From Pseudomonadota bacterium (lineage in GTDB: Bacteria; Desulfobacterota; Desulfobulbia; Desulfobulbales; JAGXFP01), in NCBI GenBank assembly GCA_018814305.1, contig JAHJAA010000074.1:1-38044 (forward strand): a stretch of 38,044 nt of DNA. Reading direction: 5' to 3'. The notes under the pieces were generated by a model that saw only the letters and a program-made list of their open reading frames with translations, had not been told where the DNA came from and made no database searches. The translations under genes were made by a program, and so were the position numbers. Positions 6,476 through 38,044 of the stretch are shown here, piece after piece (position 1 is the first letter of the stretch; the number at the start of each line of letters is the position of its first letter).

Positions 6476-8604
6476 AAAAATTTCTTACGTTATCGATACT
6501 CCTTCTTTTTGTCCTGGTTCTCTTGGGCTGCCAGGGCGGTGGTCCTGGAGTGAGCAGTGACGATCCTGTTGTCACCATTGGTGACTCAACCTGTCCCACC
6601 TGTCCTTTGATCGTGAACAGTCTCGATGACCAGGAAACCCTGGCGGGGAGTGGGACCATGACCCTCCGCGCCGCTCTGGCTCAGGCGGCCGATTCCCAGC
6701 CAATCACTTTTGACCCGTCTTTGAACGGCGGCATCATCGACTTGTCCACGGTGGCTGAAGTCCATTCCATGCTCAAAGGCGAAGTCATGGGTATGAAGGA
6801 CGAACCCAGCGGCCCGGTTTCTTATCTGGTCGGCTACCTTGAGCGTGATTATGGGAGATCTGCCCTCTATGCCCGGAAGAATGTGGTGATCGATGCCTCG
6901 GCGCTGCCGACCGGTATCACCATCGCCTGGACCGGGGGAGAGCAGAACCCGGCCCGAGTCCTGGCCGTTTACGGGAATCTGACCATGACCAATGTTGCAG
7001 TGACCGGCGGGTGGAGTGTTGCGGAAGACTTGCAGCAGCCGACTCCTTGCCCGAATCCCGACGACCCGGATGATGCCACCCAATGTTCAACCCGGGCCCG
7101 CGGTGGGGCAATTGCAGTCTGGGGTACCGCCCAACTCATTGACTGTACGCTCTACGACAATCACGTGTTGAAACCGGCTGCAGTTCCAAGCCGATCGCGG
7201 GACAGTGGGGCCTTTGGCGGCGGACTCTATGCAGATATCGTCGAGCTGAAGAACTGCATTGTCAGCGGCAACACCGTCACCGCCAGCGGGGTCTCCGGTG
7301 GCGGGGTTTTCTCCGTTGGAGGGGCGGAGAGCGAGACAAATATCTCGACTATAGAGCGATCAGCCATCACCGGCAACCAGATCAGCGGGTTCATGGCCTA
7401 TGGTGGTGGAGTCTATTCAGACGGTGGCGGGATCGGCAAGCGCAATACCCTGCAACTGATCAACACAACCATTGCCAGGAATACGGTCGATATCGCCCCA
7501 ACCTCTATTGTCCCTTCCTTTCTCAATAAGATGGGATACTGGCGCGGTGGCGGGGTCTACATGTCCAACGGTAGTCTCTATATGCAGAGTTGTACCGTGG
7601 CGGAAAACGAGGTGACCGGGGTCCCTCGGATCGATTCACTGGACAGACCCAACCTGGCCGGGGGGATTGCCGCGACCATCGGTAACGCCCATGCGGTGGA
7701 GGCAATGACCATCGGCCATTCCATCGTGGTCGGCAATACCGTTCAGCAAGAGGGCGGCGTTTCCTATGATCAGGATATCTTCACCGGTTCGCTGCTCCAC
7801 TTTAAAAGCTCGGGGTACAATCGCTTTGGGGTCATTGATTTCAGTCAACTTCTGGTTCCGGTCGGGGTGCCGACCTGGGAGTCGTTATCCCGGAAGCATT
7901 ACCCCAAAGAGGGCGACACCGAAGGGGTTCTGGCGGCGGATGTTTTAAACCTCACCGATGGTATAACTTGGTCTGAGACAATCTTCTCCACAGGGGGTGA
8001 TGCCGGAAATTTAGCGGTACTCCATTACCAACCGAGAGGAAATGCCCTGGATCAGATCCCGGCATCACCTTATTTTGTAGCTGAAACCTATGCGGAATAC
8101 AGTCTCGGCCCAGATGGCATCGACACCTTTCCCACGATCATGCTTGACCGGATCGAGGCGGAGTATGGTCTTGTCGGATTTGCCGCAGCCTTTACAGCGG
8201 ATTTTGAAACATTTCTGCAAACCGTTGATACCGACGAGGAGACCGCTGGCCTTCAGCCCTTTAGGGACTCAACCGGCGCTCCGATTCTTACCTTGGCTGA
8301 GGCTCAATGGTTTGGTCCAGCAGAGACCTGGCCCAAAGAGCTTGCCAATTACCCCTATATTGAGTTCTGGCATCAGCTTGATCGAGCGCTTGCGGCGGCG
8401 AATATCCCGGGGATGGGGTCGGAGCTTCTGGATGATGCCGCCTGGGCGAAGCTTTTTGTAACCGGAGCGCTTCCTGAAAATCCTGAGATCATGATGACGG
8501 TGACCACCAGTCCACGATTTGTGGTGCCCCAGGTGGCAGACCAGCTGGGAAGCGTTCGACCGGCGAATACCTTGAGTGACATCGGGGCCATTGAGATCCC
8601 CTAA
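6472..8604 (+). CDS. beta-helix lipoprotein, choice-of-anchor Q / CSLREA type
   Basis: This 710-residue protein begins with a lipoprotein signal (MKKF, a leucine-rich core, lipobox LLGC with C20 as the lipidated residue). The next region resembles the CSLREA start of such proteins (LIVNSLDD, TLRAALAQA). Residues of about 150-450 carry repeated GGG[VI/L]Y-type strands with N-rich turns (GGGLYADIVELKNC, GGGVYSDGGG, GGGVYMSNGSLYMQSC), as expected for a right-handed parallel beta-helix. The C-terminus ends in DIGAIEIP, the choice-of-anchor Q signature. The start at 6472 is chosen because it gives an intact signal peptide, with GGGAG 4 bases upstream. It is probably anchored in the outer membrane. 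A GT8 glycosyltransferase gene follows 28 bp later in the same direction, so glycosylation of this or a related surface molecule is possible. The ligand is unknown. Confidence 0.88.
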   Translation: MKKFLTLSILLLFVLVLLGCQGGGPGVSSDDPVVTIGDSTCPTCPLIVNSLDDQETLAGSGTMTLRAALAQAADSQPITFDPSLNGGIIDLSTVAEVHSMLKGEVMGMKDEPSGPVSYLVGYLERDYGRSALYARKNVVIDASALPTGITIAWTGGEQNPARVLAVYGNLTMTNVAVTGGWSVAEDLQQPTPCPNPDDPDDATQCSTRARGGAIAVWGTAQLIDCTLYDNHVLKPAAVPSRSRDSGAFGGGLYADIVELKNCIVSGNTVTASGVSGGGVFSVGGAESETNISTIERSAITGNQISGFMAYGGGVYSDGGGIGKRNTLQLINTTIARNTVDIAPTSIVPSFLNKMGYWRGGGVYMSNGSLYMQSCTVAENEVTGVPRIDSLDRPNLAGGIAATIGNAHAVEAMTIGHSIVVGNTVQQEGGVSYDQDIFTGSLLHFKSSGYNRFGVIDFSQLLVPVGVPTWESLSRKHYPKEGDTEGVLAADVLNLTDGITWSETIFSTGGDAGNLAVLHYQPRGNALDQIPASPYFVAETYAEYSLGPDGIDTFPTIMLDRIEAEYGLVGFAAAFTADFETFLQTVDTDEETAGLQPFRDSTGAPILTLAEAQWFGPAETWPKELANYPYIEFWHQLDRALAAANIPGMGSELLDDAAWAKLFVTGALPENPEIMMTVTTSPRFVVPQVADQLGSVRPANTLSDIGAIEIP

Positions 8605-16078: not shown

Positions 16079-19000
16079 ATGGAAAGATTGATGAAATACG
16101 GCATTAGTTTCTCCCTGTTTGGGTTGATTTGTTCATGGGCGCTTTTGGTAGATCTGGCGCTCCCTATATCATGTTTTGGGACCGATTTTGTTGCCGAAAC
16201 GATAAAGGTCTCTTCCGGTGTTACGGTGATGAAAGTCGGTGGGGACTATGCGGCGTATCTTGATGATGGTTCGGTTAATAGTGTGCCGAGAGAGATGATC
16301 GCCAGGGAGTTCTATCGCACCCATGCTGATCGGTATAACTTCCTCCTCTTTTTTTCCGACTTTGATTTCGCCATGCCATCCGGTGAGACGGTCGCTTTTT
16401 ATCTTGGAGTAAAGAATGATGTTCAGGGGATTGGTTTAGGCCTGTTTGATGATTCCACTCGGTTCGGCAGTAATGGGACACTCCAGGGAACCATTGATAT
16501 GGGCAACCTGGCGAATATGGTGGTCGATCCCCTGTCGCCGGATTTCTCATTCACCATGGGAACATTGAGCCATGAGTTGATGCATCGCTGGGGCGCCTAC
16601 GTTTCATATATGGATCCTGATGGGATTGAGATGCACAGTCTGCTTGGGATCGATAATAAACACTGGAGCTATCTTTTAGATACCCAGGGGTCGCTCATGT
16701 ACGGCAATAACTGGCATAATAACGGTGATGGGACCTTTGCCTCTTTTCCAGGCCGAAGATATTTCAGTCCTCTGGACCAGTATCTCATGGGAATTGTTGA
16801 CGAGTCTCAGGTCCCGCCTATGCTCCTTATTGATAATCCTGATATCGAGCCGCAACAGGTTTCCCGGGAAGGTGAGACAATCAGCGGGACTGCGCGTTTC
16901 GTGACCATCGATCAGGTAATTGCGGCCATGGGCGAGAGAACTCCCGGTGTGGTGGATTCACAGAAGACTTTCCGGGTTGGTTGTGTCTATCTGACCCGAT
17001 CCGATAGCTACGATCCTAATGATTTGTCCAAAATCAGAATGGTTCTCGGGCAATGGCCGCTGTGGTTTTCCGGTCTGACCAACGGCAAGATGCTGATTTA
17101 CACCGATAGTGAATCGGTTGCAACCCTGCCGCACAATCCCGGGACTTCACCTGATTCCGTTACCCCACGAACCATTCCTCCGGAAATTAATGACGGGGTC
17201 GCTTGGCTAATTAACCACCAAACAGAAAACGGTTCTTGGAAAGATACCGACCAAACCGTTCAGAGGGATACTGCGATAACGACTTCCGTGTTAGCTCAAT
17301 TCTCAGAAGCGACTTCTGCTGTTGAATCGGCTATCCCTTGGATTTCTAATCGAGCAAGCTTGAATGTTGATTCCTTGAGTCGGAAAATCATTGCCTTTGT
17401 TAAAAATAGTCTAGATACGACGGCCCTGACAACAAATCTTCTTGAACTCAGGAATAACGACGGAGGGTGGGGTGATAAAGAAATATATCTTAGTAATCCC
17501 TATGATAGCGCTTTTGCACTCAGTGCACTTGGGGCAAGTGGATTTTCAGAATCGCCGATCCTTGTTCCCTGTCTTGAATATTTGATAGGGAGTCAGAACC
17601 CTGACGGAAGTTGGAGTAATGACTCTGGTGAAGGTGACTTGGTTGTTTCGGCTGGTGTCCTGGCGGCATTGGCTGAATTTCAGACTTTTGATTTTGTAGA
17701 TGAAATCCTTGCGAAGGGCCTTCAATGGGTTTATGGCAGACAAAATACAGATGGTGGATTCGGTCTTGGGGGGAGCACTGTCTATGAAACAGCTCTTGTC
17801 TTGGATTGTTTGAAGAAATCAGGTGTGTCTTCGGAGGTTTTTCGGAATGCGATTGACTATATTTATGGTTTGCAAGAGGAAGATGGGAGCTGGTATGGAA
17901 GTATTTATCAAACAGCACTCGCTGTACATGCCATTTGGATCGGTTCACTTGAACCTGATCTTGCGGTTGATGCGGTTGATGTTTCTTTTGCCCCTGAGAC
18001 CGTCTCTCTTTTACCCGGAGAGGTAACTATTTCCACGGTTATCCACAACCTTGGGCTGACGGATGTGAGCTCTGCCAAGGTTTCCCTCTACAGTGAATCA
18101 ATAGAAGAAGATACTAAGCTGGATGAAATTAATATTGCTGTGCCGGGACAATCCACCACCTCGGTCGCATTGCGGTTTACCGTTAAAAACAGCAATGTAT
18201 TACATCTCTATCTGGTCGTTGATCAGGATAATTCTATCTCCGAAGCCAGTGAAAGGAATAATACACTTATCCGATTTTTCTACCCGGAAATGACCTATGA
18301 TCTGGCGGTTAACCAACCGTTACATATTACACCGGATCGACTTGATATCTTTCACCAGACGACTCTTTCTGTAACCGTCAGCAATTACGGTACATTGGAC
18401 GCCTATAACGTGCCGCTTCGATATTTTTGGGAAGACGGTAATGGAAATATCGTAGATCTTGCGGTACTACGTTTGGATGTCCCGTCCATGGGGGTTGTCC
18501 AACATCAACTGGACTGGCAGGCCATGAAGGCCGGAGAAAACATGAAGGTCTCTGTTCAGGTTGATCCGTATAATGCCTTTGCCGAGGAGTCAGAGGAAAA
18601 TAACCTTGTCTCTACGACCGTCTCAGTGAACCAATCAAGTTTGCCTAATCTGATAATCGATTATCATGATATTTCTGTTTTTCCTTTCCCCGGAAGGGAA
18701 GCGGGAACAACCAGTATCTCTCCAGTTATTGAAAACAATGGTTTTTCTCCGGCGGAGAATTTTAAGGTCCAATGTATCTTGGTTGATCAGCAGGGGGAGG
18801 AGACAGTTATCGGTGAGGAAGCTATCACCTCTTTAGCTGCGGGAGAAACCGTTACGCCGAGTATCCAATGGCATAACATATCAGTGGTTGGTGAGTATTA
18901 TTTGAAAATTACTCTGGATACAGATCAAGTCGTAACCGAGATCGTGGAAGCAGACAATTCTGCATTCATTCAATACCAAGTTTTGTCTTTGCCCGATTTT

Positions 19001-22000
19001 GTGGTTTCGGATAGCTCGATATCCTTCATTCCGGCGGTACCCAAGGATGGTGATATGGTCTCAATTCATATCATGGTTCAGAATTCCGGAGAACAGGAGG
19101 GGGTTGACGTCCCGGTCGTCCTCACTGAGAATGGTCATCAAATTGCTGAAGGGATAATTTCGCTCATCGAAGGCAATTCCCAGTCTGAAATCGTTCTGAT
19201 ATATGATGTTTCCGATGGCACGGGTTTACATGATTTGCTTGTGACAGTGGATCCCAATCGTACGATTCTCGAGCAGAAGACCTTAAATAACTTTGCTCGT
19301 CGGACCATGAGTGTCCAGAATGGCGATCTCTGGCTTTCTGAGCGGTATATTTCTCCCAATGGCGATGAGAGTCAGGATTCGACACAATTCTCCTTCCGGT
19401 TGACCACACCCTCTGATGTAGTTGTTGCTGTTATTGATGATGAAGGTGCTGCGGTTAGGCAATTTGCTGGTCCTGATTTTGAGAACACCTTGGGGGGAAC
19501 CGTCCTGTGGGACGGTAGGGGTGATGAAGGACAAATCGTTCGGGATGGAGATTATTCATTTCAAGTACGTACTCTAAATGGCTCCACTTTGGCGATGCTC
19601 CCTGTCACCGTTGACAATAACCTCTCACCTCTTACGGATGCCGTCGGGACGGAATTCCTACGACAGAATAATATGACCTGCGGTTTTCCATATGCAAATG
19701 GAATATGGCTTCCCGACGACAGTGGCGTAGTCTATTACGTCCCGTATTACCGAAAAACATTCGAGTATCCTATTGGGCTTTATTTGATTCCACCTGACGG
19801 CCAGGGTATTACACGCCTGGTGCCGTGGGAATGGAGTGAAGAACATGATAGATCCGGCATGCTTTTATATAGGTATGAATACGAAGACATCCAGGTCTCT
19901 CCTGATGGTCAACATGTTGCCTTCCTGCTTAAAAAATATGCCCCGAACATTTTACCAGGAGGAATTTATGGTGATATATCAAAACAACTCTGGATTGCAG
20001 AAATCAATGGTCGTGGGCTGGACCTCGTAATTTCCGCTGATTATTACGATCAAAACAAAGCTAAAGTATATCCCATAGATCCCCTGCATTTTGTTTGGAG
20101 TCCGAATGGACAGTCATTGACTGTCGTTACCAGGGATCTGCAAACCCAGGTTTTGGATACTTTTGAATATCAACTGAACACCAAAGAATATCACCCTTTG
20201 GCAACACCGGATATTGCTGAATACCGAATACCTGAAAATACTGCTAATGATTACGCCAAATGGAAAATGAGTTGGTCTCCAGATGGTACATTTCTTGTCT
20301 ATCAGGGGGGGGCACAGAATAGCGTTTTGGTTACTTCCGGTGCAGGTTATGCAAATCAAATAGACTTGCCGTTCGGAGTGCAAAAATTGGAATGGCTGAA
20401 TTCGACGGTTTTACTCGCCTACGCTTACGATGGGATTGCTTTGGTGACCGTCAAAGGCAGTAGCCTTGAAGTCACAATAATTGATATGGGGGCTTCTTTT
20501 GGCGAGGTGAATGAATTGGCTGTCAATCCATCGGGGCCTGGCTTTGCCTATGTGAGAAAAAATTTAACAGTCGGAGACCCCAATGATTGGGATCCGGAAA
20601 AACGCGGAGTTTCGTATCTTTTTGTCTGTGAAACGACAGGATCATGCTCCATCATTACCGAAACTCCAGAGAGTAACTATTATGCCTTTGATATCAAAGA
20701 CATTGGTTGGAGTCCGGACGGTAAACGACTTACCTATGTGGAATCCATATTTAAGGACGATTATGGGTGCGTGGCGGATGAAAATATGGTGGTTGTTGAA
20801 ACTGATGCGTCCAATGAGTTTATTTATCAAGTGTCTGAAAATCGTGGATTTCACGGTACGTATGAATGGCCTTGCTGGGACGAAATTGCCAGTGGAATTC
20901 CGCCGGGAGCTGAGATCACGGAGTACGTAGACGGATCATTGCATTGGTTGAACGGTGGTACTCATCTCCTTTTTGAAAACATGGAAGATGGGACCAAGGC
21001 CCTTGATATCCGTAGCGGTGAAATTCTACTTTTGCCAATCAAAAAAACGGGCAATGACAACACTATTCAAACCAGACCCACGCCATTGGGTCGTTATTTG
21101 TCATACTCGATCATTGTTCCACAAGACAGCGTTTGTTTTGATTCCAGTTTTATCAATGATTGGAGCATGAGTTCGTTGTTGAATCTGACGGCAGATTTAA
21201 AAATATTCAAAGAAGACAACAGCTTACGTCTTAAAGGTGTCGCTTCTGATCTCCATTTTTCCCACTATTTGCTGGAATATGCCGATGCCGGTCAATCGGA
21301 TATTTGGAATCTGGTGGCCCCGGCTTCCAGTCGGATGGTATTGGATGAGGATTTTATCCATTGGATTCCCCCCCACGAGGGTATCTTCATTTTACGTCTT
21401 ACCGTCACCGATCGAGCCGGTAACACCGAAGTAGATCAGAGAACTATTTCCTGGGGACAACATACATACGTAACTGACGTCTACAGCGTAGGTGATTTGT
21501 TTTCACCGAACAATGACGGTGTCTTGGAGAGTGTTGAGCTTCATTATCGGATTCTTGAACCTATTCGATTCGAAGTACAGGTTATCGATGAATCTGGGAG
21601 GGTTGTCCGAACTTTTCCCAAAGAATATCTGACACCGCCTGGAGAAGATGGTGCGGATTTTATTATCTGGGATGGTCGTGATGAGATTGGACAGGTTGTT
21701 TCGGACGGGAAATATATCATACGTCTTTTTGATCTGGAGTTCGCTTTTCAGGTGGATACTAAGCCGCCCGAGGTCGTATTGACTTTGGACGAAGAAGTTT
21801 ATAATTCTGAAAAATTTACGTTAGCCTGGAGTGCACCACTCACCGCTGAAGCAGCAGATACTCATCTTAACGGCTGGATTCTTGAATACGGAAATGGCGA
21901 CAATCCTCAAGGCTGGTATGAATATTCGCGGGATCAATACAAAAATTCAAGAGATGATTCAGTGCAAAATGTTATATACCATGCCAAATTGCCCCCTCCT

Positions 22001-25000
22001 CCTTTGATATTTGCGGTTGGAAAGAGTTTCCGACTCACAGCTTGGGACGCCGCCGGAAATGTCACAACCCAAACTACGAATAACCATATCCAGGAAGTTC
22101 TTGTCCTTGATGCCTGGCTGGATGAAGATGTATCCGGAAATCTTGAAGACCCGAAAAGATGGATTCCTGTTGATTTTAGACTGAATGAACTTGGTGAAAT
22201 TGTTCCTAACCCGGGCATCATTTCGGTGGAAGACTCTCGGGCGGGTATACATACCATTCGTTTTAATGAAACAGTTCGCGATCCTTTACAGCAGCTTATT
22301 GTTCAATACCGAATCGATGACGGAGAATGGTTTAATTCAACCACAATTCTGCCCGAAAACGGAACAGGAGTTATTCAGTGGGATAACACCGATTTGAGGC
22401 ACGACAATGTCAATACAGTGAGACTTAAAGCGATTGATGTATATGGCATGGAGTATTATTCCAATCCGGCGATCATCGGGTCAAACTTTGCACTTGGCTA
22501 TGGTTCGGACCCTATAACCAGTGAATGTGTATTGAGGGCAACCCAACTGCTCTATGAGCATCTCGACAAGCTATCCTTTGTGTTAAAATGCGATGCAACC
22601 ATTGATGAGTTCCAGGTGTTTGATCGGAGTGCTGGAGATGTCATCCCTTCAGGCACTTTTGGTGTCACCAATCCCATCCTGCCGGCAAATAACGATGGGA
22701 GCTCATGTGAAATTTTCATGGAGGGCACGGATGTCTTCGGAGAAGTGTATCGAACCGGGGAATACCTTGAAGGAGATTCGCCTGAGACTTTTCATTATTT
22801 AAATTATGAAAAGTCATGTAGATATGACGAACTGTATGTCAATATTGATTATAAGCCGGCACGCTCCTGTAATTTGATCGCCCCCGGTCAGGTTACTATT
22901 GCCGCCTCCATGAGCCTCAGTGCAAATAGTTTTCCAGGAGTTTTGCAGTCAATCAGTTATTACCTCGAAAAAGAAGAATTTGTAGGTACGTCCTGGGCGG
23001 ATTTGGTCTTGCCTGATGATTATGAACTTCTAGCGGAGCAGAATGAATATAGAAGTGTCGAATGGAATACCAAAAAGTCTTTAGAGTGCGGGGCATGGAC
23101 CTCCGCTCCTGAAATAGGATTCCGAAAGATAACGGAATTCTATTTTAATCCAATTACTATTGAAGTCTCTGGGAAATCCGAAGGAAACTATCAAATTTTT
23201 GCTCTCGCTACATTCATCGATAAAAAAGGGGAAGTCCATCAACATACAGCCGTTGGGAATTTGCTGGTTGATAGAGTTCTGCCAGAAGTGGATGTAATAG
23301 TTGGGGATGGTGGGAGTGTTGTCTGCCCATATCCGTATAATGAGTCCACTAATGATATTTTTACCGTTGATGTTTCGGGGGATGCTTCTGTAGATACCCC
23401 GGCAAATAGGCTGGTCGGCGCAGGATTCTGCTACAACAATGGTTTTGATCAGAGAAGTGTTGGTATCGATGCGATTGATGCAAGCGGTAGAGGGGGGCCT
23501 GTTGCAAGAAAACCATTGGCTTGGCTCACAAGCGGGCAGTCCGTTCGCCCGGGAGGGGCCTGGTATGTTGATGGATTACAGGAAGATGATGTAACTGTAA
23601 TGTTGGGGGCTTCAGACCTGGTTGGCAATTATGCCTGTGCTTTTACCAATGTGACTGTTGATCGTGTAGTGCAGATTGATATTCCAACGGAACAAAAATA
23701 TGGAAGCAACATAAAAGTCATCTCACCCAATAGAGATGGCATCGCTGATGCAGCATTTCTTGAATATGGGATCGGTGAAGAGGCTCTGGTCAATATTTCG
23801 GTCTTTTCAGACGGAATACCGGTTCGTCATCTTGTACAAAGCAACTGGGAGCCGGCGGGCACTCATCCGATCAGCTGGGATGGGACCAACGATGCTGGCG
23901 AAGTGGTACTGGATGGGCAATATTCTATAGAAGTTACTGCCACCGATGGATGCAATAACAGTCGGAGTGCCCTTCTAGCCTCTGTTGAAGTGGACAATAC
24001 CCCACCCGCGGTGATCATCTCCACTCCACAGCCGGGCGAGCCTTTAGAGCTTATTGTACGTATCGAGGGTACGGCTGATGATCCCCATTTTCAGGAATAT
24101 ACAGTTGAGATTGATGGAAACGAAGGGCGTCAGCAACTGATTACTTCTTATCGACCGGGATTTGGCCTTCTTGCCACTTGGAATATTTTCGGAAGAAAAG
24201 GATATTATACGATTTTTTTGAAAGCTTCGGACTCGGTTGGGAATACAGCCATGACAACGACTGTGCTCAACATGGCCGATAGAATTCCGTCTCCGGATCT
24301 CCTTGCCGACTTGAGTGCGGAACCTTCACTTTTTTCTCCGAACGGCGACGCAAAGTTGGATTCAACCGAAATCATCTATACCCCCAGTGATCAGGTCCAG
24401 GAACCGGTGAACGCTGTTTTGTCAATCATGAAGCAGGGTGTTGAGCGGGAGTTCATCTTTGCTGATATCCCTCCCGGTGTGCCTCAAAAGGTCCTCTGGG
24501 ATGGAAAAAACGTGAGCGGATCTGTTGTCGCGGACGGCACCTACAGCATTCAGCTTAACGTTTCTTTGGTGTCCAACCCCTCCATATCGCAGACCGAGGT
24601 GATAACGGTTGATGTGGATGCCACGGCTCCGTTGATAAATTTTTCAGATCCTGAAAATCTGCATTATTACAAAAATAATTCCGTTGCCATAGCCGGTTCA
24701 ATTGTGGACGGCCATTTGTCGTCCTTCGAGATAACCGTAGAAGATCCTTCCGGTTCAGTGAATCAGGTAGCCAGTGGCAGCCAGTCCATGCAAGACCATC
24801 AGTTCAATACCCTTACCAATCTTGCGGACGGAGCTTATCGGTTGACCGTATCCGCAGCAGACAGCATCCTGAATGAAAATCATTTGGATATTCCCTTTAT
24901 CATCGATACGACACCACCAGCCCTGCAGTTGGATTCACCGCTTTCGGGGGAAGTTTACGGTGGAGTGGATAATGGTACGATATCGGTTTCCGGGTCCATC

Positions 25001-28000
25001 GAAGAGGTAAATGTCGAGAAGTGGGAAATTCGCTATGGGGCAGGTCTCTCTCCTTTAACCTGGGAAGTTCTCTCTTCTGATACTGTTCTTCCCGCCGATG
25101 GTATAATAGGATATGAATGGAACGTCGGTCCTGCAGCGAATCTCCAAGACGGTATTTATACGATTTCATTTTTTGCCTTGGACAAGGCTGGCTGGCCTTC
25201 TGAAATCACAAGGCAGATTACCATTGATAACACCCCGCCAGTTGTCACCATCTCTTCCCCGGAACTCTATGTCACCGAAAACGGACCGATTAAAGGTACG
25301 GCGACCGATGCCAATTTGACTGAGTTTACGCTCTTACTTGCCGGTGGGAGCTGTGCTGATTCCCTTGGGTGGCAGCCGATCATGGCCGGGACGAAAAATG
25401 TACAAGAAGGATTATTGACGCATTTTTCTTTGCCCGCAGACGGCGGATACTGCTTGAAGCTTGAGGCAATTGACGGATCGGGTGCACGGAGTAGCGTCCT
25501 GCATGAGATTATTGTCGATACAACTCCACCAATTTCACCTACTCTCTCCGGTGAACGCGTCGATCAGTCCACCGTTCAGCTTCTCTGGGAGGGGAATTCT
25601 GAAACCGATCTTGCCGGCTATAACCTTTATCGAGACGGTCAGCTTGTGAATGACATTTTGTTGACCGAGAATGAATACATCGATGGAGGACTCAAAGACG
25701 GAACATATAGCTGGACCGTAAAGGCAATTGACAAGGCCGGTTGGGAGAGCCCGAATTCCAACGAAATTACAATTAGGGTCGACATTGTCCCGCCGAAAGT
25801 TGGTATCCGTTTTCCCGTTGATGCTGCATTTGTTTCCAATCTCGTCAAAATTACCGGCACCGCATACAGTGCTGATGATTTTAAAGAGTACCGGGTTTTC
25901 ATTGCTTCCGCCCAATATCCTGATCAGTGGAGTCTCATTCGTAAATCACCACTGGCGATTTCATACGGGAACCTGGCCGATTGGGACACCTTCTCCCTGT
26001 CTGAAGGGAACTACCTGATCAAATTGGAAGCGGAAGATTTAAACGGGAATATCGGGACCGAGCAGGTGGAAGTCACGGTGGATAATACTCCGCCCGGTAA
26101 ACCGAATTTACTCAGCGTCATCCAACCTGACTCGCAACTTTCTGATACGGAAATAGAATGGTCCCCGAACCAGGAAGACGATTTGGCAGGCTATCTGTTA
26201 TATAGGAACTATGATCTCGCCAATGCATCAGCCCTTGTGACCGGCAATTTGACACCTTACCTGATCAATAGCCTAACCTATACGGATTCCTCCCTGCCGG
26301 ACGGCACCTTCAGTTATTTCGTGGTAGCCATGGATCAAGCCGGGAACCTGAGTGATCAGTCCAATTCGATTTCAATTGATATCGACACTCATCCGCCCCA
26401 GGCGGTGCTCACAGAGCCTGTAACCGGTATCAATTTTGATCAGTCAATACTCCTCAAGGCTGAAAGTCAAGATCTCGACGTGGCATCTGTTCAGTTCCAA
26501 TATCGTTCTCAAACAGATCCCGTTTGGTTGGATCTTGGAACACCGGTGACCTCTTTGCCTTTCTCAAAGGTTCTTAATCCCCTCGACTTGGGGTTTGATT
26601 ATGGGTCCTATCAACTCAGAGCGGTGGCTACCGACCAGGGTGGACGCACCGATGCCGCCCCCCAGGAAATTACCGTCAATTTTACCGATTTATCACCGCC
26701 GGCTGCACCGAGCGGGCTTGTTGCCACCGTCCGCGGCGATGAAATTACATTGAGCTGGGATGCGAATCAGGAATACGACCTGGCTGGCTATGTTATTTAT
26801 CAAACCAATTCCGGGAATCATACCCTGGTTGCAACTGTACCACCAAGCACGACCTCATTCTCCTTTGTGGGTCAGGCCGACGGCCAATACCAATTCGCAA
26901 TCACTGCGCTTGACACCGGCGATAATGAAAGCCCGGAGTCTACAGTTTTCCCGTTAGTCTACACACCACTCCTTGCTCAGCCTGAATTTCTCTATGCCGA
27001 ACCCTCCATCCTTGTGTCCGGCTCAGAATGTCAGCCCAATGATGATGTCTCTTTGTTAAGGGAGGCTCCCGGCGGCCCCGAGGTTCTTGGTGTGGCCCGG
27101 GCCGCATCCGACGGGACCTTTCAGTTGGATATTGCTTTGGTGGATGGTGTTAATCGGATTTTTGCCCGGTCAGGGAATGGCAATGACTTCAGTAATCCCT
27201 CTCCGGTCATTACCGCTGTTTTGGATCTACCTCCTGACCCGCCGACGGGGTTGACCGCCACAGTATCCGGTCCCGATGTTCAACTGGATTGGAACCCGAA
27301 TGCCGAATCGGATCTTGTTGGATATATCTTCTACAGGGATGGTCAGGTTTTGAACGCTGCGGTTCCTATAACGGATGGAACAACGAGTGATACGCCTGTC
27401 ACCGGTATGTCCGAATATGCCTTTGATGAGGACCGGGATACGTACTGGTCGGGTAGTTTTTCACAATTCAACGGGGAGTCCGCTGTTTGGCAAGTAAATT
27501 TCCCGGCCAGCCATTTATTGAACAGTATCGAATTGGATTGGGAAAGTATCGACTCCTCCGCTGGTTCCTTCATTGTAGAGAGGTGGGATGGTTGGGAGTG
27601 GACTGCACTGACCGAAGTTTCAGGAAATGTTTCGGCACAAAATACATTCGTCATTTCTCCTGCAGTACCAGTCGAAGGCCTGCGGATTATCATGAGAACC
27701 GGTCAAAATGCGACTGTTGATCAAGCGGAAGTGCATATTGCCGAAATTCGATTTATTGAGCTGCAGCCCATAATCGATACATCCTACATTGATCAGGGGC
27801 TGGCCAATGGGACCTATTCTTATTCCATAACGGCCGTGGATGCTTTTCTACAGGAAAGTTTGCCCTCGAATGTCGTCGATGCCGTTATAGACACAATGCT
27901 TCTTCCCCCACCGGTTTTGAAGCCGGTAGTCGCTCTCCCGGAAGGCGCTGGCCTGACGGTGTGCTGGTCTGAGGTTCCCGGAGCAGTTGGATACTCTGTT

Positions 28001-31000
28001 TATCGACGCTCAAGTGGGGATGGGATATATCAAACGGTGGCCGCATCACCACGAACCGGGTTGTGTCTGGATGACCTCAGGTTGACCGGTGGTACCCCAT
28101 ACTATTACGTAGCAACCTCGGTCGATGGTTACGGCAACGAAAGCGAATACTCTGCCGAAGTTTCCGGGATTCCATTTTCTCCGCTACTGCAAACTCCCAT
28201 CATACAGCAACCAGCCACCGCAACAGGCGAGGTGACGGCAACCTGCCCACGTTTGACCATTTCAGGTATTTGTGGAGAGGGTGATACCGTCGAACTCCTT
28301 CGGGACGGAGTTGTCATCGGAACCACCCAATCAACATCGGGGACTTCTTCTAATGAAATTCTAAGCGGGATACCGGAATTGATCGGTCTGACGGTAGAGT
28401 ATGCTATTGGCTCACCGAATGGTAAATATGTGGTCATCAATTATGTTGATGACAACGATCTGCTGGTCGCCGCTGCTTACGATCTCACTACCCGGGTGTT
28501 TACGGCAATCAATCTCCCCGGGGTGAACGGCAATTATTTTGTCAACTGGTCACCAGATGGATTGAAAGCAATTTTCGAATGTATCGATATCAACGATTCA
28601 TCGAACTATTATGTCTATGATACTTCGACCTTGGCTACCATCCCCATCGGAGTTGATGGCGATATCATTTCTTTTGATTCATTGGAACATTGGTCCGGCG
28701 ATGGTGGAAAATTGGCTTTTGACTACCGTGATGACAACGATGTCAGCTGGGTCGCAGTTTTGGATATTGGAACCGGGGATACACATCAGGTTGTAATCGA
28801 TAAGAGTGTCGAGGCTTGGGTGGATGGGTGGTCGCCTGACGATCGTTTTGTGACGGTATCCTATTATGATACTGATGACATTTCCCATGTTGGTCTTTAC
28901 GATGTAAACGATCGGTCGTTTAGGGTGGTAAGCAGGTCCGACGCCTGGGAAAGCTGGCCCAATGAATGGTCCTCGGATGGGTCACATCTTGCGATTTCGT
29001 CTTCGATCGATGCAGTCTTCATCACCATCTATGACGTGACAACCGGCAACCTGACTACCATTGTTACCCCGGACAGTTATGACAACTGGTTTGATGGCTG
29101 GTCGCCGGATGGTACGAAGATTGTCTACTGTGCCGATATTGCTGATTTCGGCTGGCAATTATCCATTTATGACCGGGGTTCCGGGGAAATTCGATCACCG
29201 GTTGATTTCGAGGTCAATTTTGATGCGGCGGTCTGGTTTCCGGACAGCAGCGGATTCATTATTCCCGCTGAGACGGCTCTGAATCCATCTTTCAGTTTTT
29301 ACCGACTGGATCTCGCAGTTGGAGAACTGGTTCCGCTCAACACCAGTGATGCCGGGACGGATTTTTTCTTGACTCCCGACGCCCGTTTTCTCTCCTATCA
29401 TCCGGATTCGGATTGGGATTCAACCAACATCTACGATTTGAGTACCAAAACTGAAGTCGCTACTCTCAAATCGGGAGAGGAATCCTTTATTGGTTGGTCT
29501 ACTGCGGGCGATTCTTATATCAGTCTGCGTGAAGCCGATGATCCTCAGTCGCTGTGGCTGAATTCCGTTGCAAACTCGATTGACCACCAGCAGATCGGAC
29601 AAGGAAATCCGGAGATCATAAATGTTCGTTCTCATTCTGGCGGATCCATTTCTTATTTTGACGGAACTGAATTCCACCTGGTCAATTCGGGCGGTACCAG
29701 TGCATTTACCTTTGCTGATATAGCACTCTCTACTGGGGAGCATGTTTTTGCGGTTCGGGCTACGGATGGAGCCGGAAACTTCAGTTCAGAATCTCCGGCT
29801 ATTTCGGTGACCGCCGATCCCTCGATTTTCGAGGGCCCGCCTTCGCCGGATCCTTTGACAATTACAGCCAATTCGGAAGGCATGGGCTTGACCGTCTGCT
29901 GGACTGCGGTTGATGGGGCGACCGGCTACAAACTTTATAAGCGTTCGTCTGTCGGGAATACTTTTGTCACCTTGAACGCATCCCCATTGACCAATACCTG
30001 CTATTTTGATTCCGAACTTATCGAAGGGGAGGAATACTCCTATGTTGCGACCTCAATCGATGGTTGTGGGCTGGAGAGTGAATTTTCGGGTGAGACAACG
30101 GCTATTGCCGAGAACTATACCTTGAGCCGACCGGTTATTCTTCAGCCGGTCGGGGCGGGAGCAACAATCACCTCCGCCGATTCCCTCGTTGATATATCAG
30201 GACGCTCCGATCCTGGCGTTTCGGTGACGTTGAGCCGGAACGGAAAGGAGATCGAAACCGTTGTCTCTTCCTCCGAGTTAGCAACGACTCCACTTCTGGG
30301 GGCGATTCCGGAACTGGCCGGCCTGGCAATAGAAGACGTTTACGCGTCACCGGACGGACGGGGAATGCTCGTCGAATATTACGACCAAAACGGGGATGCC
30401 GACAGGGCCTATTATGACAAGACAACTCGTGAATTTGTCCCGATCGGCCTGCCTGGAGTCAATGGCAATGATTTCAGTACCTGGTCCCCGGACGGAACGA
30501 AAATTATTTTCGAATGCATCGATCAATATGATCAGTCGCATTATTACGTTTATGGGCTTGCCGGTGGAAATCTCTATCAGATCATCATCGACGGTGACTT
30601 AGATGATGACCTGGAGTCATGGTCTGCCGATAGTTCGAAACTCGCTATCCAGTATTTTGATGGGAGCGGCGTCCTGAGTTTGGCTGTTTTCGATTTCTCC
30701 ACCGGTGAAACCGACGCCATAGTCGTTCCCAGCTGTCTTGAAGTGTGGAATGGCTACTGGTCACCGACCGACTCGCAACTCATGATCGAATACCGTGATG
30801 AAGGCGATGCCCTCCGCCTCGCGCTCTACGACTGTGATCAACAGCAACTGCAGTTGGTTATAGTGCAGGATAGTGATGAAGAGTGGGCATCGGAATGGTC
30901 CCCGGCCGGGCGTTATTTTGCCTTTGTCGCCTCAGGAAATTATCAGGAAAAATTAAAGCTCTATGACGCCGCCGCCGGCGTTGTCCTGTCGGTGGACTCC

Positions 31001-34000
31001 CCCGGGGAATATGATTGGTTCGGGGCCTGGGCTCCCGATGGCACGAAGTTCGTGTTCAATTCAGATATTCCGGGGTGGGGAGTTCAACTCACTCTCATGG
31101 GGCTAGACACCTGGGTATGTTCGCAATTGGGCGATGACGAAGTCGAATTCGTCAATATTGCCTGGAAGCCCGATGGCAGCGGTTTGGTCTTTTCTATGTA
31201 TGGTCCATACGGAGCAATACCCTATGCCGAAATGGATCTTGTTACCGGCTCTATCAAAAACATAAACACCAGTGCGGCCTCCTATGCTTTCGAATTGTCT
31301 CCCAACGGTCGCTTCCTGTTATATCGGGCAACAAACAACGGCAAGTATATCTATGACCTGATCAACGACGTTGAAACAGAAGTTCAGGCTCCCACCTACC
31401 AATTTTTACAAGGATGGGCTGGTGACGGACAATATCTGGTCACTCTCCAGACGTACAATATTCAGCCGGAAGTTTTGTTGATCCCGACCGATAATCCTTA
31501 TGACAGAATATGGGTCGGCACCGGAAATCCTTGGATTGAGCGGGTGACGATTGCCTCGAATGGCTCATTGTATTTCTTCGACGGTTCGGAGTTCCAGGAA
31601 GTCTCATTACCAGGAACGTTCGTCTTCCCGGATATCTCACTGGAGTATGGTGCAAACATCTTTACCGCCAAGGCGACCAACGACGTTGGGGAGAGCAGCG
31701 CTGATTCTCTTCCCGTCACTGTGATCTATGACTCGGGTTCCCTACCCGATCTTGCCATCGATTCCAACGACATTTACCTCTATCCTCTCGCTCCGCTGGT
31801 TGGAGATCCGGTCACTATTTATGCAGAGGTTCATAACGACAACCCAGTCATCTTGACCAACGTCGATGCGGATCTCTATATCCAGGATGCCCTTGGCGGT
31901 TTCGAGTGGTTGGCTTCGCAGCATTTCTCCGTGTTCAATCCCGGTGAGTCGGTCTGGCTTAACGCTAGCTGGGACACCACCGGTCGGACCGGAATGAATA
32001 CCATCTATGTGGTGCTCGATGGGGATGACACCATCATGGAGGCCGATGAGAGTAACAATATGGCGGCCAAGAGTTTCATGGTGGTCGAAGACCAGGGTCC
32101 GGCCCTTACCGCAACCCTTGATCGGACGAGCTACCCGGCCAACGACACCCTCGCGCTTGACGTCACCATCTCCAACAGTGGTCCAACCGCCACCTTCAGG
32201 GTAGCACCCGTGGTCGAGAACGCCGCCGGGGCCGTGGTTGCGCAACTCACTGAAATCAATGTCGATCTGACCTATGGTGCGATCAAGACCCAGGCCCTCA
32301 GCTGGCCGGTTGGGGCAACCATGAACGGTGCCTACCGGGTTCGGGTTGAACTGGTTGATACGGCTGGGAACAACCTCGCCGAACAGATTCTGCCCTTTAC
32401 CATCCTGCCGGATATTCGAGTGGCCGCTAAGCTCTCTACCACCACCATTCATTACGGTCCTAATAAGGATGTGGCTTTCTCCAGCCAGGTTGATTTTCTC
32501 GGGGTCAATGCCCTCATGCCGTTGATGGATGTTCATCTGGCCGTCAGCTCCGACCAGGGTGAGGTCTATACCGCCGATCACCAACTCTCCGGCCTGTTTC
32601 ACCTCTCTTCGATGGTTTTCGCTGATCAATGGTTTACCGGGATCTCGGCCCCGGGGAACTATCACGCAGTGATGACCGTGTTCCATCAGGGTGAGGTTAT
32701 GGTTACAGCCGAGACCGATATCGTAATCGATCCGGCGACCACCTATACCGGCTCTCTGCACCTTGCCTCCGTGGTGATCCCGGACGGAACCCCGGTTGAT
32801 GTGGAGTATGCTCTGCAAAGCAGCGGTAATGCGGCGGGCGGCGAGCAATCGCTCCGGGTCGAGTTGCGGGATGCCGGGGGTGAGACCGTGCTCTCCTCAT
32901 ATACCACTACCGTTGATCTTGCCGCCAATGACGCCATGACCGCCATAACTGGCTTTGCTGCCGAGTTCCTCCATCCTGGCGTCTTCAAGGTCATGCTTAT
33001 CCATGATAGCGATACCGGTCCGGTATCACTGGCCGATGCAACCTTTACCGTGGTCGATATCGCTCCGCCTCAAATAACGATCAGCTCGCCACTGGACGGA
33101 GCCATCATCATCCGAAGCCCGGATCTGACCGTAACCGTAACCGACGACTCCTCGGGGGTGGCCACGGTGGAGTACCTGATCGATGCCGGTTCCTGGCAGC
33201 CCATGCCGGTGGTGGACCCGTCCACTTCCCGCTATTCCGTCAAGTGGACGGTCGGGGAGGCCGATGAGGGCAGCCATCTGATCTCCTTCCGGGCTACCGA
33301 CCGGGTGGGGAATATGGCTCAGCCGGTGACCAGCTCCTTCACCGTGACCCCGCTGGTGGAGATGGTCGGAAACATTGATACGGACCGGATCGCGATCAAT
33401 GAGTCGCTCACTGGAAACATCCGGGTGAGTAATCAGGGTTGGGCCAAGACCCTTTCTCTGAGCATTCAGGTCGAGGATGTCTCCGGCATGGTGATCCATG
33501 AGGAACCGGATCAGGCCCTTCTTCTCCTGGATGACGCCATCGCCGAAATCCCGCTCTCTTGGAAAGTGGGAACCACCGCAGCCGGACCCTATCGGTTACA
33601 GTTGCTCCTCCATCGAGCAAGCGAGATCCTGGCCGAGCAAACCCTCGATTTTGAGATCCTGCCCGGTGTGGTTTTGAATGCCACCTTGACCACCGATCAA
33701 CCTTCCTACGGAATGGCCGAGGATGTCACATTCTCCGGACTTGTTGCCAGTCAGGGTAATTTCTCTCTCCCGGAAGTCACTACCCGGTTGACCATTATTG
33801 ATAATACCGCCGTCACGGTTGCAACCATGGAGCAGGCTATTCTTGATCTGGCCCCGTCCTCGGAGAAGCCGGCGACCTTCCTCTGGAATACCGAACGGTT
33901 CCCGGCCGGGATCTACCAGGCCACCTTGGAAATCGTGGCGGCAGGCGAGATCAAGGCCGTGTCCACGGTTTCTCTCACCATCGAACCGGTGGTGGACATC

Positions 34001-37000
34001 ACCGGCACTCTTTCCTTGGCTTCGCCGGAGGTCTCTCTGGGTGATAGCCTGCCCATTGATCTGAAGGTGATGAATTCCGGGAATACCTTGGCGCAATCGC
34101 TTCCTTTACAGTTGACGATTGCCGATCCCTTCGGGGCCATGGTTGCCTCTTACGACTGGACTCCGGATCTACCCATAGATGCTCCTTTCAACCAATCAAT
34201 TACCTTTGAAACGAGCAATGTTGCCTTGGGCCGCTATCAAGTCTCCCTGGCCCATGACCAGGGGGGGACGTTAACCACCCTGGCCACCGCCGAATTCACC
34301 GTGATCGATGCGCTTCCGCCGACCCTGACCGTGCTGGCTCCTGCCGATGGGTCATTCTTTGATGGGCCTTTTGCCCTGATCGCCCAGGCAGAGGATCTCG
34401 AATCCGGCATCGAGACTGTTGACTACCAGGTTGATGGTGCCAGCTGGTTACCGCTCACCCTGCAGGTCCCCTCAACGGATCGATACGGTGCCACCTGGGT
34501 CCCGGTGGTTGCCGACGAGGGTGACCATCTCATAACCTTTCGGGCGGTGGATCGGGCCGGTAATAGCACCATCGCACCACCGGTCGCCATTACCATTGAA
34601 CTCTGTCGACCATACATGGAACTCTCCGGCACCCTTGATTATCGCCCCCAACCGCTCTATCGCGGGCAGGAAGTCGGCTTCCCCTTCAGCTTGATTAATA
34701 CCTGTGCTAAGTCCCTCGCCGGGTTAACCGTTACCCTCACCATCTCGGATCCGGCTACCGGCGGGGTGCTGGATGAGCAAATCACCACGGTTAATATCCA
34801 ACCGGAATCGGAGATGCCCGGTGAATTTCAGCTGCCTACTTTGGGGCTGGCCGACCAGGTGTATCAAGCCAGTCTGGAGGTGAGTCTGGCCGATGAACTA
34901 CCGCGGATTCTTGCCAGCCGGGATTTTTCCGTCCTCAAGCCGCTCCTGGTCTCCCTTGGCCGGGATGATCGGGTGAATATTCTGGTCTGGTTGAATGACG
35001 CCTGTGGGTTATCGAACGGCGAAAGCGACCAGAACCAAGATAATCATACCAAGGGTGAAACTGCTCGGTCCGGCAGTTATGACCATGAGAGAGGCAATAT
35101 ACCAGACTGTCTTGATCCTCTTGTGGTCAAGGCGATGTTGGCCGATTCTGCCCATGCCGTCTTCCTGACCAATGACAGGACGGAATTCGAGAGCGAACTC
35201 CGTAATCCTCAATACACCGACTTCCTGATCCTCGGTGATCATCTGCCGCTCACCGATCATCTCAACGATGAGTTGCGGGAGAAAATCCACAGCGGCGCCG
35301 GTCTGGTCAGTTCCAACTGGCTGCCGACGGAGCCGGCTGATACCCTTGTTGAGGCCCTCCTCGGGGTCAAAGGGGAGGGGAGTTATCCCGCCAGTGATTC
35401 GCTTACGGTCCGGATCGATGATAACCCGGCGGTGACATCCGGCGATCTGACCGGTGGCACCGATAACCGCAAGGTCGAGATTGCCGGTGATACCATGGTG
35501 GCCGGCTGGTTCGTCAAGACCACCTGTGTCCCCGCTCCCGATGATGACGGGGGGCATGATTCCGATGATGATCATGCCGGATCAGGCGAGGCCGGAACCC
35601 ATGGAGACGATGATGATCATTCAACCACTGATGATGATCATTCAACCACTGATGATGATCACGACTCAGCCGACGTGGAATATGGGGAGCCGACCGGTGA
35701 TGGCTCCAACGGCACCAATGGCGACCAGGCGGTTGACAGTCATGGTGGAACCGGGGGAGAGGCGAGCGGGGCTCATGATGATTCCCATGGTTCCGGTGCC
35801 GAGCAAACGGACGCTGCTAACGACCAATCCGACGACGACCACGGTGCAATCGGAGGGGAGGATGATGGTGACCAGAACGATTCCCATGGAACCGGCGATG
35901 ACCACTCGGATGATGGTCACAACGCATCCGGTGATTCGGATAGCGACTCTCAGGATCATGAAGCTGATAATGGCAGTGATCCCCATGAAGCTAAAGACGG
36001 GGATGATCAAGGTGATTCGGACAACGATCATGCCGACAAAAAATCGATGAACGTCACGAACGCCCAGGAGAGAAAAATATCTCCAATGGTTGTCCGGAAA
36101 GGCATTACGATCACCTTGAGTCGCGATTCCCATGGCGGCGGGGACAGCAAGGATGATGACACCCCGGCCACCTGCATCGAGAGAGAAGAGATCCTGACCC
36201 CGGCGGTTGTTCTCCACGATTACGGTCTCGGCCGGACCCTCTATTACGCCTTTGATTTCAGCAATCCGGTCGCCTCGGATTCAACCCGGATCGCTTCACT
36301 CCTGGCCGAATCGTTGGGCTATGTCCATGTGCTGCCACCCACGACGGCGCCGGTTCCCCTGACCCCGGCTCCGGTGCGTTGGGAAATCACCAGCCCGGGG
36401 ATAGGCTTCGATCTGAGTCTTGTGACCCTTTTCCCCGAAGGCCTGGGGCTCCATGATCCTGTAACCGGGGGCCTCTCCACCGACACCTGGCCGACCACGG
36501 CCGGGGTTGCAGCAGGCAGCACGACCTTTGTGCCCTTTACCATCCTGCCGCCGGAAGGTTCGGGAAGCTATCGCCTTGAGCTCCAGTCGTCGACCCTGGC
36601 GGAGGGGCTGTTTCTCCAGCAGGATGGCTTCGATTTTACCATTGCCAACGATAGGAACGATTTGATCGATCAGGCCCTGGTAACCCTCGGGGATCTGCCG
36701 GTTTCACGGCAAGAGCGTGCCACCGTTAAAGCGATCAAGCAGAACCTGGAAACGCTGCGAGATCGCCTGATCCGTTGTCTCCCGGATATCGAACAGAATA
36801 TTCATGATCTCAACCGGGCGATCAGTGACCTCCGCTCCCTGGAAGCCATCGACGTTCTCAATCTTCGTCTGCAACTGGATGAGTTGCTCAAGGTCGAAGA
36901 GAGCCGCTGGTACTTCTATACCGGAACCACCAACTGCGGCGGGAAAGATGATCATGACGATAAGAAAAATCCTGATGATGATGGTTCGAGTCACAAATCG

Positions 37001-37006: not shown

Positions 37007-37074
37007 ATTGTATCAACCGGAGAGTGTCCTAAAAGGAGGCTTTCCCTCCCCTTGTCATGTAGCCGAGCACCGCA

Positions 37075-37144
37075 GTTAGTGACGGACAAGACGATGAAAC
37101 TGTTTGAGCCCATAGGGCGAGTTTTTCAGCGTCCCGTCACTGAC
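37075..37144. repeat. long imperfect inverted repeat
   Basis: GTTAGTGACGG (37075-37085) pairs with CCGTCACTGAC (37134-37144). Inside it GACGATGAAAC pairs imperfectly with GTTTTTCAGCGTC. Together they make a long cruciform-like structure. Confidence 0.7.
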
Positions 37145-37202
37145 GAGAAGCACAGGGGGCGCGCCACAAGCGCGACAAGTGACCGGGGTGCCCTTTCTTT
37201 TG

Positions 37203-37236
37203 GTTCGTTTTCTTTGGGCAAACAAAGAAAATGAAC
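37203..37236. repeat. 14-bp stem-loop of a repeat-like element
   Basis: GTTCGTTTTCTTTG (37203-37216) and CAAAGAAAATGAAC (37223-37236) pair over 14 bases, with one G-U, around the loop GGCAAA. Sequences of this CTTTGGGCAAACAAAG kind are, from memory, common dispersed repeats in proteobacterial genomes; a genome search would confirm. Confidence 0.75.
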
Positions 37237-37327
37237 AGCTCCGCTGGTCAGGTGGACCTTTTTATGATCCGTCCATAGAACAAGAGGTTTATTCCTTAAC
37301 CTATAATTTTAAACATACAACTATCCC

Positions 37328-38044
37328 ATGACCCGACTATACTCCATACTCTCCGTCTTCTTCCTCCTGCTGCTCTTCATGCCGATGTCGACCCACGCCG
37401 CCGATTTCACGGTGGAACGAGCCATCCAGCACGACCTGATCCTCAGTCGCTCGATACTTTTATCCATCGAGGCCAGGCAGAAGGCAGGGCAGGAGGTCAC
37501 CACCCAGATCGCCCGGTTAAAGGCATTGGCTGAATCGATCCGCGCCAACCATGAGCTGCTTGTGGAGCGGTTCGCGGCCCGGGATGAGGTGACCGCCAAT
37601 ATCGGTGAAACGGCGGAGACCCGGCAGCAGGAGATGGTGGACGGATATATGACGTTTCTGGACGATTATCTGGTCACCATCGGCTATCTGCCCGACGATG
37701 CGGTGAGCCGGAGCGATATCATGCTTCTCAAGGCCCATTTCGAGCAGATCCTGCCCAAACGGACCCTGCCGCTCTTGGGCACTCTGCCCTATCGTCATCT
37801 CCTCCAGGCGCCCAAATCCCCGCTCATCGAACCGGCGGTGGTCCCGGCCTACCAGGGTGGGGCCGAACGGGCGGTCACCGAGGCGGACCTGGCCGCAAGC
37901 CCTGAGTCCCCAATCACCCTGGAGATTGCCCAATTGGCCGAGTCGCTCCACTGGAGTCCCTTGGAGATCTATGCCTGGGTTAAGAACAATATATCCTCGG
38001 AATGGTACTGGGGGCTGATGAAGGGGGCGGAGGAGACCCTCCGG
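37328..38044 (+). CDS. secreted transglutaminase-like protein, N-terminal part (cut by window end)
   Basis: The frame is open for 239 codons to the window edge, so the protein is partial. It starts MTRLYSILSV with a leucine-rich signal peptide and a likely cleavage after STHAA at about residue 25. Residues 30-100 look helical and may form a coiled coil. Near the end, LEIYAWVKNNISSEWYWGLM and KGAEETL match the entry to the transglutaminase-like domain seen in large exported proteins of Desulfobacterota and Geobacter relatives, where a GNDxDQA stretch and the catalytic Cys normally follow beyond this point. The catalytic residues are therefore not visible. It lies 321 bases after the giant gene, in the same direction. 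No clear Shine-Dalgarno precedes the ATG. Confidence 0.85.
   Translation, partial: MTRLYSILSVFFLLLLFMPMSTHAADFTVERAIQHDLILSRSILLSIEARQKAGQEVTTQIARLKALAESIRANHELLVERFAARDEVTANIGETAETRQQEMVDGYMTFLDDYLVTIGYLPDDAVSRSDIMLLKAHFEQILPKRTLPLLGTLPYRHLLQAPKSPLIEPAVVPAYQGGAERAVTEADLAASPESPITLEIAQLAESLHWSPLEIYAWVKNNISSEWYWGLMKGAEETLR

What the first reader, a model, noticed from the sequence alone, without database searches (positions are those of the whole stretch)
16079..37006. A 6975-residue exported protein starting with a metallopeptidase-like and a toroid domain
The frame is unbroken for 20.9 kb. It joins an HELMH metallopeptidase-like domain and a squalene-cyclase-like toroid to four CARDB domains, FlgD-type Ig domains (SPNGD motifs), three propellers and a C-terminal amidotransferase-like domain. 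I know of no described protein with this order. The enzyme-like domains sit at the N-terminus, with a very long adhesive stalk after them, as if a protease were displayed or released from the cell surface.
Basis: partly seen in the sequence, partly recalled or inferred. Interest (0 to 1): 0.75.

Follow-up and report, generated by a model that had tools for sequence, protein, structure and literature searches.

The report
Giant exported partner of lipase toxins
This 6,975-residue exported bacterial protein belongs to an undescribed family of giants, found in two phyla, whose gene usually sits next to a swappable-warhead toxin gene carrying a lipase, so it is most likely the fixed partner of a toxin system rather than a lone surface protease.

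Summary
The frame 16079-37006 is unbroken, and nearly all the named domains are present. It is not an assembly join: colinear homologues of about 5,440-6,430 residues, with the same domain order, occur in other genomes of the same order and in Nitrospirota. The N-terminal domain is the best conserved part. Its HExxH is invariant in 33 of 33 sequences and lies in one helix of a confident model, but no known peptidase fold was matched significantly.

The surroundings change the reading. In all eight loci of the order with a complete A, the giant (A) is followed within 1 kb by gene B: signal peptide, inactive-type transglutaminase domain, Ig domain, variable C-terminus. B starts at window 37328 and is cut by the contig end. 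In several Nitrospirota B lies just upstream of A instead. B behaves as a polymorphic toxin: two B proteins of one genus are 64% identical up to residue 1349 and unrelated beyond. Its tips, or a cassette protein beside it, resemble lipases, esterases or zinc phospholipase C, with a small exported ORF next door.

Best reading: A is the giant constant partner of a two-gene, Sec-exported, lipase-type polymorphic toxin system. Proteolytic activity and A-B binding are untested. New variant of a known kind.

The parts
16079..37006 (+). Gene A, 6975 aa giant exported protein
   Evidence: unbroken frame; full-length colinear homologues
16079..16183 (+). Sec-type signal sequence (by inspection: hydrophobic stretch; homologues end in AxA-like sites)
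   Evidence: sequence; alignment
16184..17143 (+). Uncharacterised HExxH domain (putative zinc metallopeptidase), most conserved part of A
   Evidence: alignments; AF2 pLDDT 87.4, pTM 0.85; no Pfam or NCBIfam model
16571..16585 (+). HELMH motif (HExxH), invariant 33/33; invariant HW at 16661 and near-invariant YLMG at 16781 follow
   Evidence: helix 125-141 of the model contains it
17168..17953 (+). Alpha-alpha toroid with QW-type repeats, no DxDD motif
   Evidence: AF2 and Foldseek hits to squalene-hopene cyclases; motif scan
17954..19333 (+). Four CARDB domains
   Evidence: Pfam PF07705, four stretches
19337..19603 (+). FlgD-type Ig domain 1 (SPNGDE)
19676..21148 (+). Beta-propeller region 1 (PD40-like; limits approximate)
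   Evidence: weakly conserved among homologues
21476..21748 (+). FlgD-type Ig domain 2 (SPNNDG)
23711..24568 (+). FlgD-type Ig domains 3 and 4 (SPNRDG, SPNGDA)
24569..27390 (+). Bacterial Ig / fn3-like array (limits approximate)
   Evidence: Pfam Big_13, Big_3_3 and others
27395..27700 (+). Discoidin (F5/8C)-like stretch
   Evidence: PF00754 E 2.6e-4, below the curated cut-off
28346..29578 (+). TolB-like beta-propeller 2, gapped out in the five-way alignment of homologues (extra copy)
30266..31408 (+). TolB-like beta-propeller 3
31742..32083 (+). Fifth CARDB domain
33068..33346 (+). OmpL47-type / Big_7 Ig domain (a second stretch of the same models is reported)
34976..36313 (+). Class-I amidotransferase/ThuA-like C-terminal domain, interrupted by a D/H-rich insert (35540-36169)
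   Evidence: conserved in nine sequences of two phyla; weak ThuA/GH42M hits
36656..36958 (+). Conserved, apparently helical C-terminal end ending RWYFY (helicity judged by eye)
37328..38044 (+). Gene B, first 239 aa only (contig end): signal peptide, N-terminal region that looks helical, start of the transglutaminase-like domain
   Evidence: homologues next to A in other genomes

Best explanation
A is the large, constant, exported partner of a two-gene polymorphic toxin system. B is the toxin-bearing protein: signal peptide, N-terminal region, catalytically dead-type transglutaminase domain, Ig domains and an exchangeable C-terminal part (lipase/esterase-like, or an RHS shell with its own variable tip, or a short tail beside a cassette with a zinc-phospholipase-C-like protein). 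The small exported ORF next to B or to the cassette is the candidate immunity protein. Most likely mechanism: both proteins leave by Sec; A forms a long surface fibre of Ig, CARDB and propeller domains that binds B and presents it to neighbouring cells, and A's HExxH domain cuts B or A during release. Shown here: linkage of A and B in two phyla, polymorphism of B, conservation of A with its HExxH. Inferred: export route, A-B binding, peptidase activity, target and immunity.
For: (1) Linkage: in all eight loci of the order with a complete A, B starts downstream on the same strand: 10, 34, 57 and 90 bp after A in four, 321 bp here, about 0.8 kb with a small ORF between in G012, and one A-length from the A start in the others. 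In the order A occurs in 10 and B (E<=1e-40) in 10 of 243 genomes, with 8 shared, hypergeometric p 7e-12; genomes are related, so p is only indicative. In Nitrospirota G753, G850, G736 and G647 B lies upstream of A on the same strand. (2) Polymorphism: B of G458 and G570 (one genus) are 64% identical over 1-1349, nothing beyond; G029 and G570 alike to 2943, then different. (3) Effectors: Tle1-like lipase, alpha/beta-hydrolase AHSLG-type motifs, Zn-PLC-like cassette protein, PDB 8cqm E 0.0012 with HxxxDxxxPxH. (4) Cassettes: the C-terminal 275 aa of G850 B are shared with HExxH-domain carriers; 5'-truncated orphan copies lie downstream of carriers in G781 and G857. (5) Matching partner ORFs: one family goes with one B tip (G024/G058/G580/G736), another with a second (G458/C37). 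(6) HExxH 33/33.
Against: No experiment. B occurs without A (G013; two further B copies in the window's own genome, C35 and C47), so A is not strictly required. Seven of 20 Nitrospirota genomes with the HExxH domain gave no B match, and only some of the others have B on the same contig. Some HExxH-domain proteins are 2,200-3,300 aa carriers with the domain near the C-terminus; no B was found in the three genomes of this kind searched. The peptidase fold was not matched significantly. The window's own B is cut before its variable part, so its effector is unknown. Immunity function of the small ORFs is untested; their similarity to a carboxypeptidase-regulatory domain is weak. No dedicated outer-membrane exporter was identified.
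Confidence: 0.6

Rival explanations
1. A is a surface adhesin or biofilm-matrix protein, and B with its lipase an independent exoenzyme; they sit together because both serve attachment and scavenging of lipids.
For: Ig, CARDB, F5/8C and propeller content is typical of adhesins. CARDB-containing adhesins are reported in sulfate reducers (PMC10553843). Effectors found are lipases, which could also feed the cell.
Against: C-terminal replacement within one genus, matching downstream ORFs and orphan cassettes are signs of conflict systems, not of nutrient enzymes. The best conserved part of A is the HExxH domain, not the stalk.
Confidence: 0.22
2. A itself is the weapon: a surface-tethered metalloprotease that attacks target envelopes or matrix, with B as an accompanying toxin.
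For: HExxH is invariant in 33 relatives and lies in one helix of a confident model; the six best VIA rows are metzincin proteases (Z 4.1-4.6).
Against: Z values are not above background (phosphatases at 4.0 just below) and Foldseek gives nothing below E 0.4. The domain does not vary as an effector would.
Confidence: 0.13
3. The long frame is an assembly or annotation artefact joining separate genes.
For: The genome is in 92 contigs and this contig ends inside B, where two paralogous copies are 80-85% identical over its last 160 bases.
Against: Many independent genomes carry the same unbroken frame in the same order, including Nitrospirota.
Confidence: 0.01

Closest known systems
Polymorphic toxins with an N-terminal inactive transglutaminase domain (Zhang et al. 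2012, PMC3482391, section 19)
   Same: Gene B: signal peptide, then a transglutaminase-like domain without the canonical cysteine, sometimes bacterial Ig domains, RHS repeats, variable C-terminal toxin.
   Different: That section describes no giant partner; most B proteins found here have no RHS repeats, and their tips are lipase/esterase-like.
VARTIG modules of Thermococcales (Makarova et al. 2021, PMC8416519)
   Same: A large Ig-domain protein in a hypervariable locus organised like a polymorphic toxin system.
   Different: There the large Ig protein itself varies at its C-terminus and is upstream; here A is constant and B varies. No shared domain order was tested.
CdiA/CdiB contact-dependent inhibition
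   Same: Works alike in idea: a very long surface fibre and an exchangeable C-terminal toxin (own knowledge).
   Different: No two-partner secretion domain or filamentous haemagglutinin repeats were matched in A; the toxin is a separate protein.
T6SS Tle lipase effectors
   Same: The B tip of G029 matches T6SS_Tle1-like (E 4e-7) and is followed by a lipoprotein-like ORF.
   Different: B has a Sec signal and no T6SS-specific delivery domain was matched.
Squalene-hopene cyclases / complement TED toroids
   Same: Fold of residues 364-625.
   Different: No DxDD and no CGEQ thioester motif.

Membership tests
Polymorphic toxin system (gene B) | Conserved N-terminal part with exchangeable C-terminal toxin region | tested here: met
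   G458 vs G570: 64% identity over 1-1349, none after; G029 vs G570 diverge at 2943. Not testable for the window's own truncated B.
Polymorphic toxin system (gene B) | Toxin-like C-terminal domain | tested here: met
   Tle1-like lipase in G029; AHSLG/AHSQG-type hydrolase motifs in others. Activity not tested.
Polymorphic toxin system (gene B) | Adjacent cognate immunity gene | tested here: inconclusive
   A small exported ORF follows, with families matching tip types; protection cannot be tested here.
Polymorphic toxin system | Orphan toxin cassettes | tested here: met
   5'-truncated copies, 61-66% identical to the carrier C-termini of the same genome, in G781 and G857; seen in the second architecture, not next to the window gene.
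Inactive-transglutaminase polymorphic toxins | Catalytic Cys lost, domain soon after the signal peptide | tested here: met
   GNDADQA in all eight B proteins of the order that reach this site, including two of the own genome; Nitrospirota have GNDCDQA, a Cys one position off by eye alignment. Window B is cut before this site.
Zincin metallopeptidase (A, residues 36-355) | HExxH on a helix | tested here: met
   33/33 sequences; model helix 125-141 holds residues 134-138
Zincin metallopeptidase (A, residues 36-355) | Known peptidase fold | tested here: inconclusive
   Foldseek best E 0.41; VIA best Z 4.6 to metzincins
Zincin metallopeptidase (A, residues 36-355) | Third zinc ligand and activity | not testable with these tools
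   Invariant H195 is a candidate only
Squalene-hopene cyclase | DxDD catalytic motif | tested here: not met
   absent from residues 361-640
Class I amidotransferase / ThuA (A C-terminus) | Sequence or fold match | tested here: inconclusive
   ThuA 0.0042 and GH42M 0.0038 in relatives, none in the window protein; PDB best E 0.058, a beta-galactosidase
CdiA-type two-partner system | TPS domain and FHA repeats | tested here: not met
   no such Pfam match in A

The most novel reading that the evidence does not exclude
A defines a new class of dedicated giant partner for Sec-exported lipase toxins, a two-partner system shared by Desulfobacterota and Nitrospirota in which an uncharacterised HExxH peptidase family on A processes or releases the exchangeable toxin protein B.
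Probability: 0.35. Interest if true: 0.75.

Novelty: new variant of a known kind. Interest (0 to 1): 0.6.

Why it matters
Toxins with an inactive transglutaminase domain were described in 2012, with only the guess that this domain anchors them at the cell surface. A conserved giant partner encoded next to them would offer a concrete candidate for display or release and make the question testable. It also gives a function lead for a family of 5,400-7,000-residue proteins, and for an HExxH domain family without a Pfam or NCBIfam model, in little-studied environmental bacteria.

Tried and rejected
Assembly join: rejected by full-length homologues. Toroid as a terpene cyclase: rejected, no DxDD. 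Peptidase fold: Foldseek found nothing below E 0.4; VIA rows at Z 4.1-4.6 were not counted as a match. Shared ancestry of A's C-terminal helices and B's N-terminal helices: hhalign probability 14% (column-shuffled controls 0.1-0.4%, reversed 0.8%), helix-like, left as a lead. Contig C37 of the own genome holds the 3' part of a B gene followed by a 348-aa ORF and could be the rest of the window's B, but the bases between are not held, so it was not joined; a search with the contig end found only the paralogues on C35 and C47. Self-BLAST of A printed no internal repeats, although cross-hits to homologues suggest a duplicated propeller block. PADLOC gave nothing for four B proteins. PHROGs gave nothing for the B fragment and two other window proteins. 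Scan of viral contigs with the HExxH domain: none. Literature searches found no description of A, though only open-licence papers were searched.

Full report
The plus-strand frame from 16079 (or a TTG at 16067) to 37006 has no stop for 6,975 codons. Pfam and NCBIfam find the toroid, four CARDB domains followed by FlgD-type Ig domains, a long Ig array, a discoidin-like stretch, TolB/PD40-like propellers, a fifth CARDB and OmpL47/Big_7-type domains. The N-terminal 320 residues match no Pfam or NCBIfam model, apart from sub-threshold M48 and reprolysin-like hits in single relatives.

The gene is not a join. A search of 58 genomes (the window's own and relatives) found the domain in six, with frames of 5,753, 5,497 and 6,358 aa in three others, a frame cut by a contig end in one (2,640 aa), and one weak match. 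The proteins align end to end at about 30-36%. In a wider sample of the order, 10 of 243 genomes carry it. One locus is in a named Desulfobulbaceae genome, UBA10518. Nitrospirota carry it in 21 of 246 genomes, some with frames up to 6,448 aa, colinear with the window protein over most of its length. The most conserved part is the N-terminal domain, at 58-64% mean identity over residues 97-296; propellers and repeated Ig stretches vary.

In 33 relatives HExxH is invariant, with an invariant His-Trp 26 residues after the second His and a near-invariant YLMG further on. A model from that alignment is confident (pLDDT 87.4, pTM 0.85) and puts the motif in one helix. Foldseek finds no PDB match below E 0.4. 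VIA lists metzincin proteases in its first six rows, at Z 4.1-4.6, with phosphatases at 4.0 directly below. So peptidase is likely but not shown. The toroid model resembles squalene-hopene cyclases, but the DxDD motif is absent.

The neighbour is the key. After a 321-bp gap an exported protein begins at 37328 and runs into the contig end. In the other genomes of the order with a complete A the same protein, B, follows downstream on the same strand: at 10-90 bp in four, about 0.8 kb with a small ORF between in G012, and one A-length from the A start in the rest. B has a signal peptide, an N-terminal region that looks helical, a transglutaminase-like domain without the canonical cysteine, and Ig domains. 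This matches a class of polymorphic toxins described by Zhang et al. 2012 (PMC3482391, section 19). In G753, G850, G736 and G647 of Nitrospirota, B lies upstream of A instead, with a small exported ORF in between and, in G850 and G647, an additional ~800-aa ORF. Linkage in two phyla with reversed order argues for a functional bond. In the order the two genes share 8 of 10 carriers (p 7e-12, not corrected for relatedness).

B is polymorphic. Within one genus, G458 and G570 share 64% identity over the first 1,349 residues and nothing after; one has a hydrolase-type tip, the other an RHS shell. G029 and G570 both have the shell and differ only after residue 2,943. The G029 tip matches Tle1-like lipases. 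Other tips carry AHSLG-type motifs. Downstream small ORFs fall into families that follow the tip type. In a second architecture the HExxH domain lies near the C-terminus of 2,200-3,300-aa proteins and is followed by a short tail, a ~200-aa ORF with a carboxypeptidase-regulatory-like domain and a ~800-aa protein. The latter matches phospholipase C in the PDB (8cqm, E 0.0012) over the motif HxxxDxxxPxH. The same tail replaces the end of B in G850, and 5'-truncated orphan copies of the tail region with following ORFs lie downstream of carriers in G781 and G857.

Interpretation. Shown: a conserved giant A, its linkage to B, and the exchangeability of B's end. Inferred: that A is a surface fibre presenting or processing B, that the HExxH domain is an active peptidase, that the small ORFs are immunity proteins, and that targets are other bacteria. 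A as adhesin beside an unrelated exoenzyme is the main rival. Limits: the window's own B is truncated; B occurs also without A; the own genome holds two more B copies without A; and seven of 20 Nitrospirota genomes with the HExxH domain gave no B match.

Composition hints at a history of transfer: third-position GC is 0.43 in the first third of A against 0.55-0.75 in the genes upstream, rising to 0.64 in the last third and 0.79 in B. The A locus lies next to two glutamyl/glutaminyl-tRNA synthetase-type genes.

Noticed in passing
window 907-5151 (-): 1,414-aa protein with a DUF4347 domain (E 2e-45), a domain I recall from large repeat-bearing surface proteins.
   Followed up: no
window 6415-8604 (+): 729-aa lipoprotein-like ORF (LLGCQGGG) without any Pfam or PHROGs match, followed by a GT8-type glycosyltransferase.
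   Followed up: partly
window 35609-35661: Perfect 21-bp tandem repeat (GATGATGATCATTCAACCACT) coding part of the D/H-rich insert, which most A homologues lack.
   Followed up: partly
window 16079-37006: Third-position GC rises from 0.43 to 0.64 along A and reaches 0.79 in B, while upstream genes have 0.55-0.75.
   Followed up: no
L063 (contig C37 of the own genome): 3' part of a B gene (1,634 aa, hydrolase-like) followed by a 348-aa exported ORF; possibly the rest of the window's B, not joined.
   Followed up: partly
L150 (G781), L151 (G857): Arrays of truncated toxin-type cassettes downstream of HExxH carriers.
   Followed up: yes
window 37007-37327: 321-bp gap between A and B contains a sequence that looks like a dispersed repeat (CTTTCTTTTGGTTCGTTTTCTTTGGGCAAACAAAGAAAATGAAC); four other measured loci have 10-90 bp here.
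   Followed up: no
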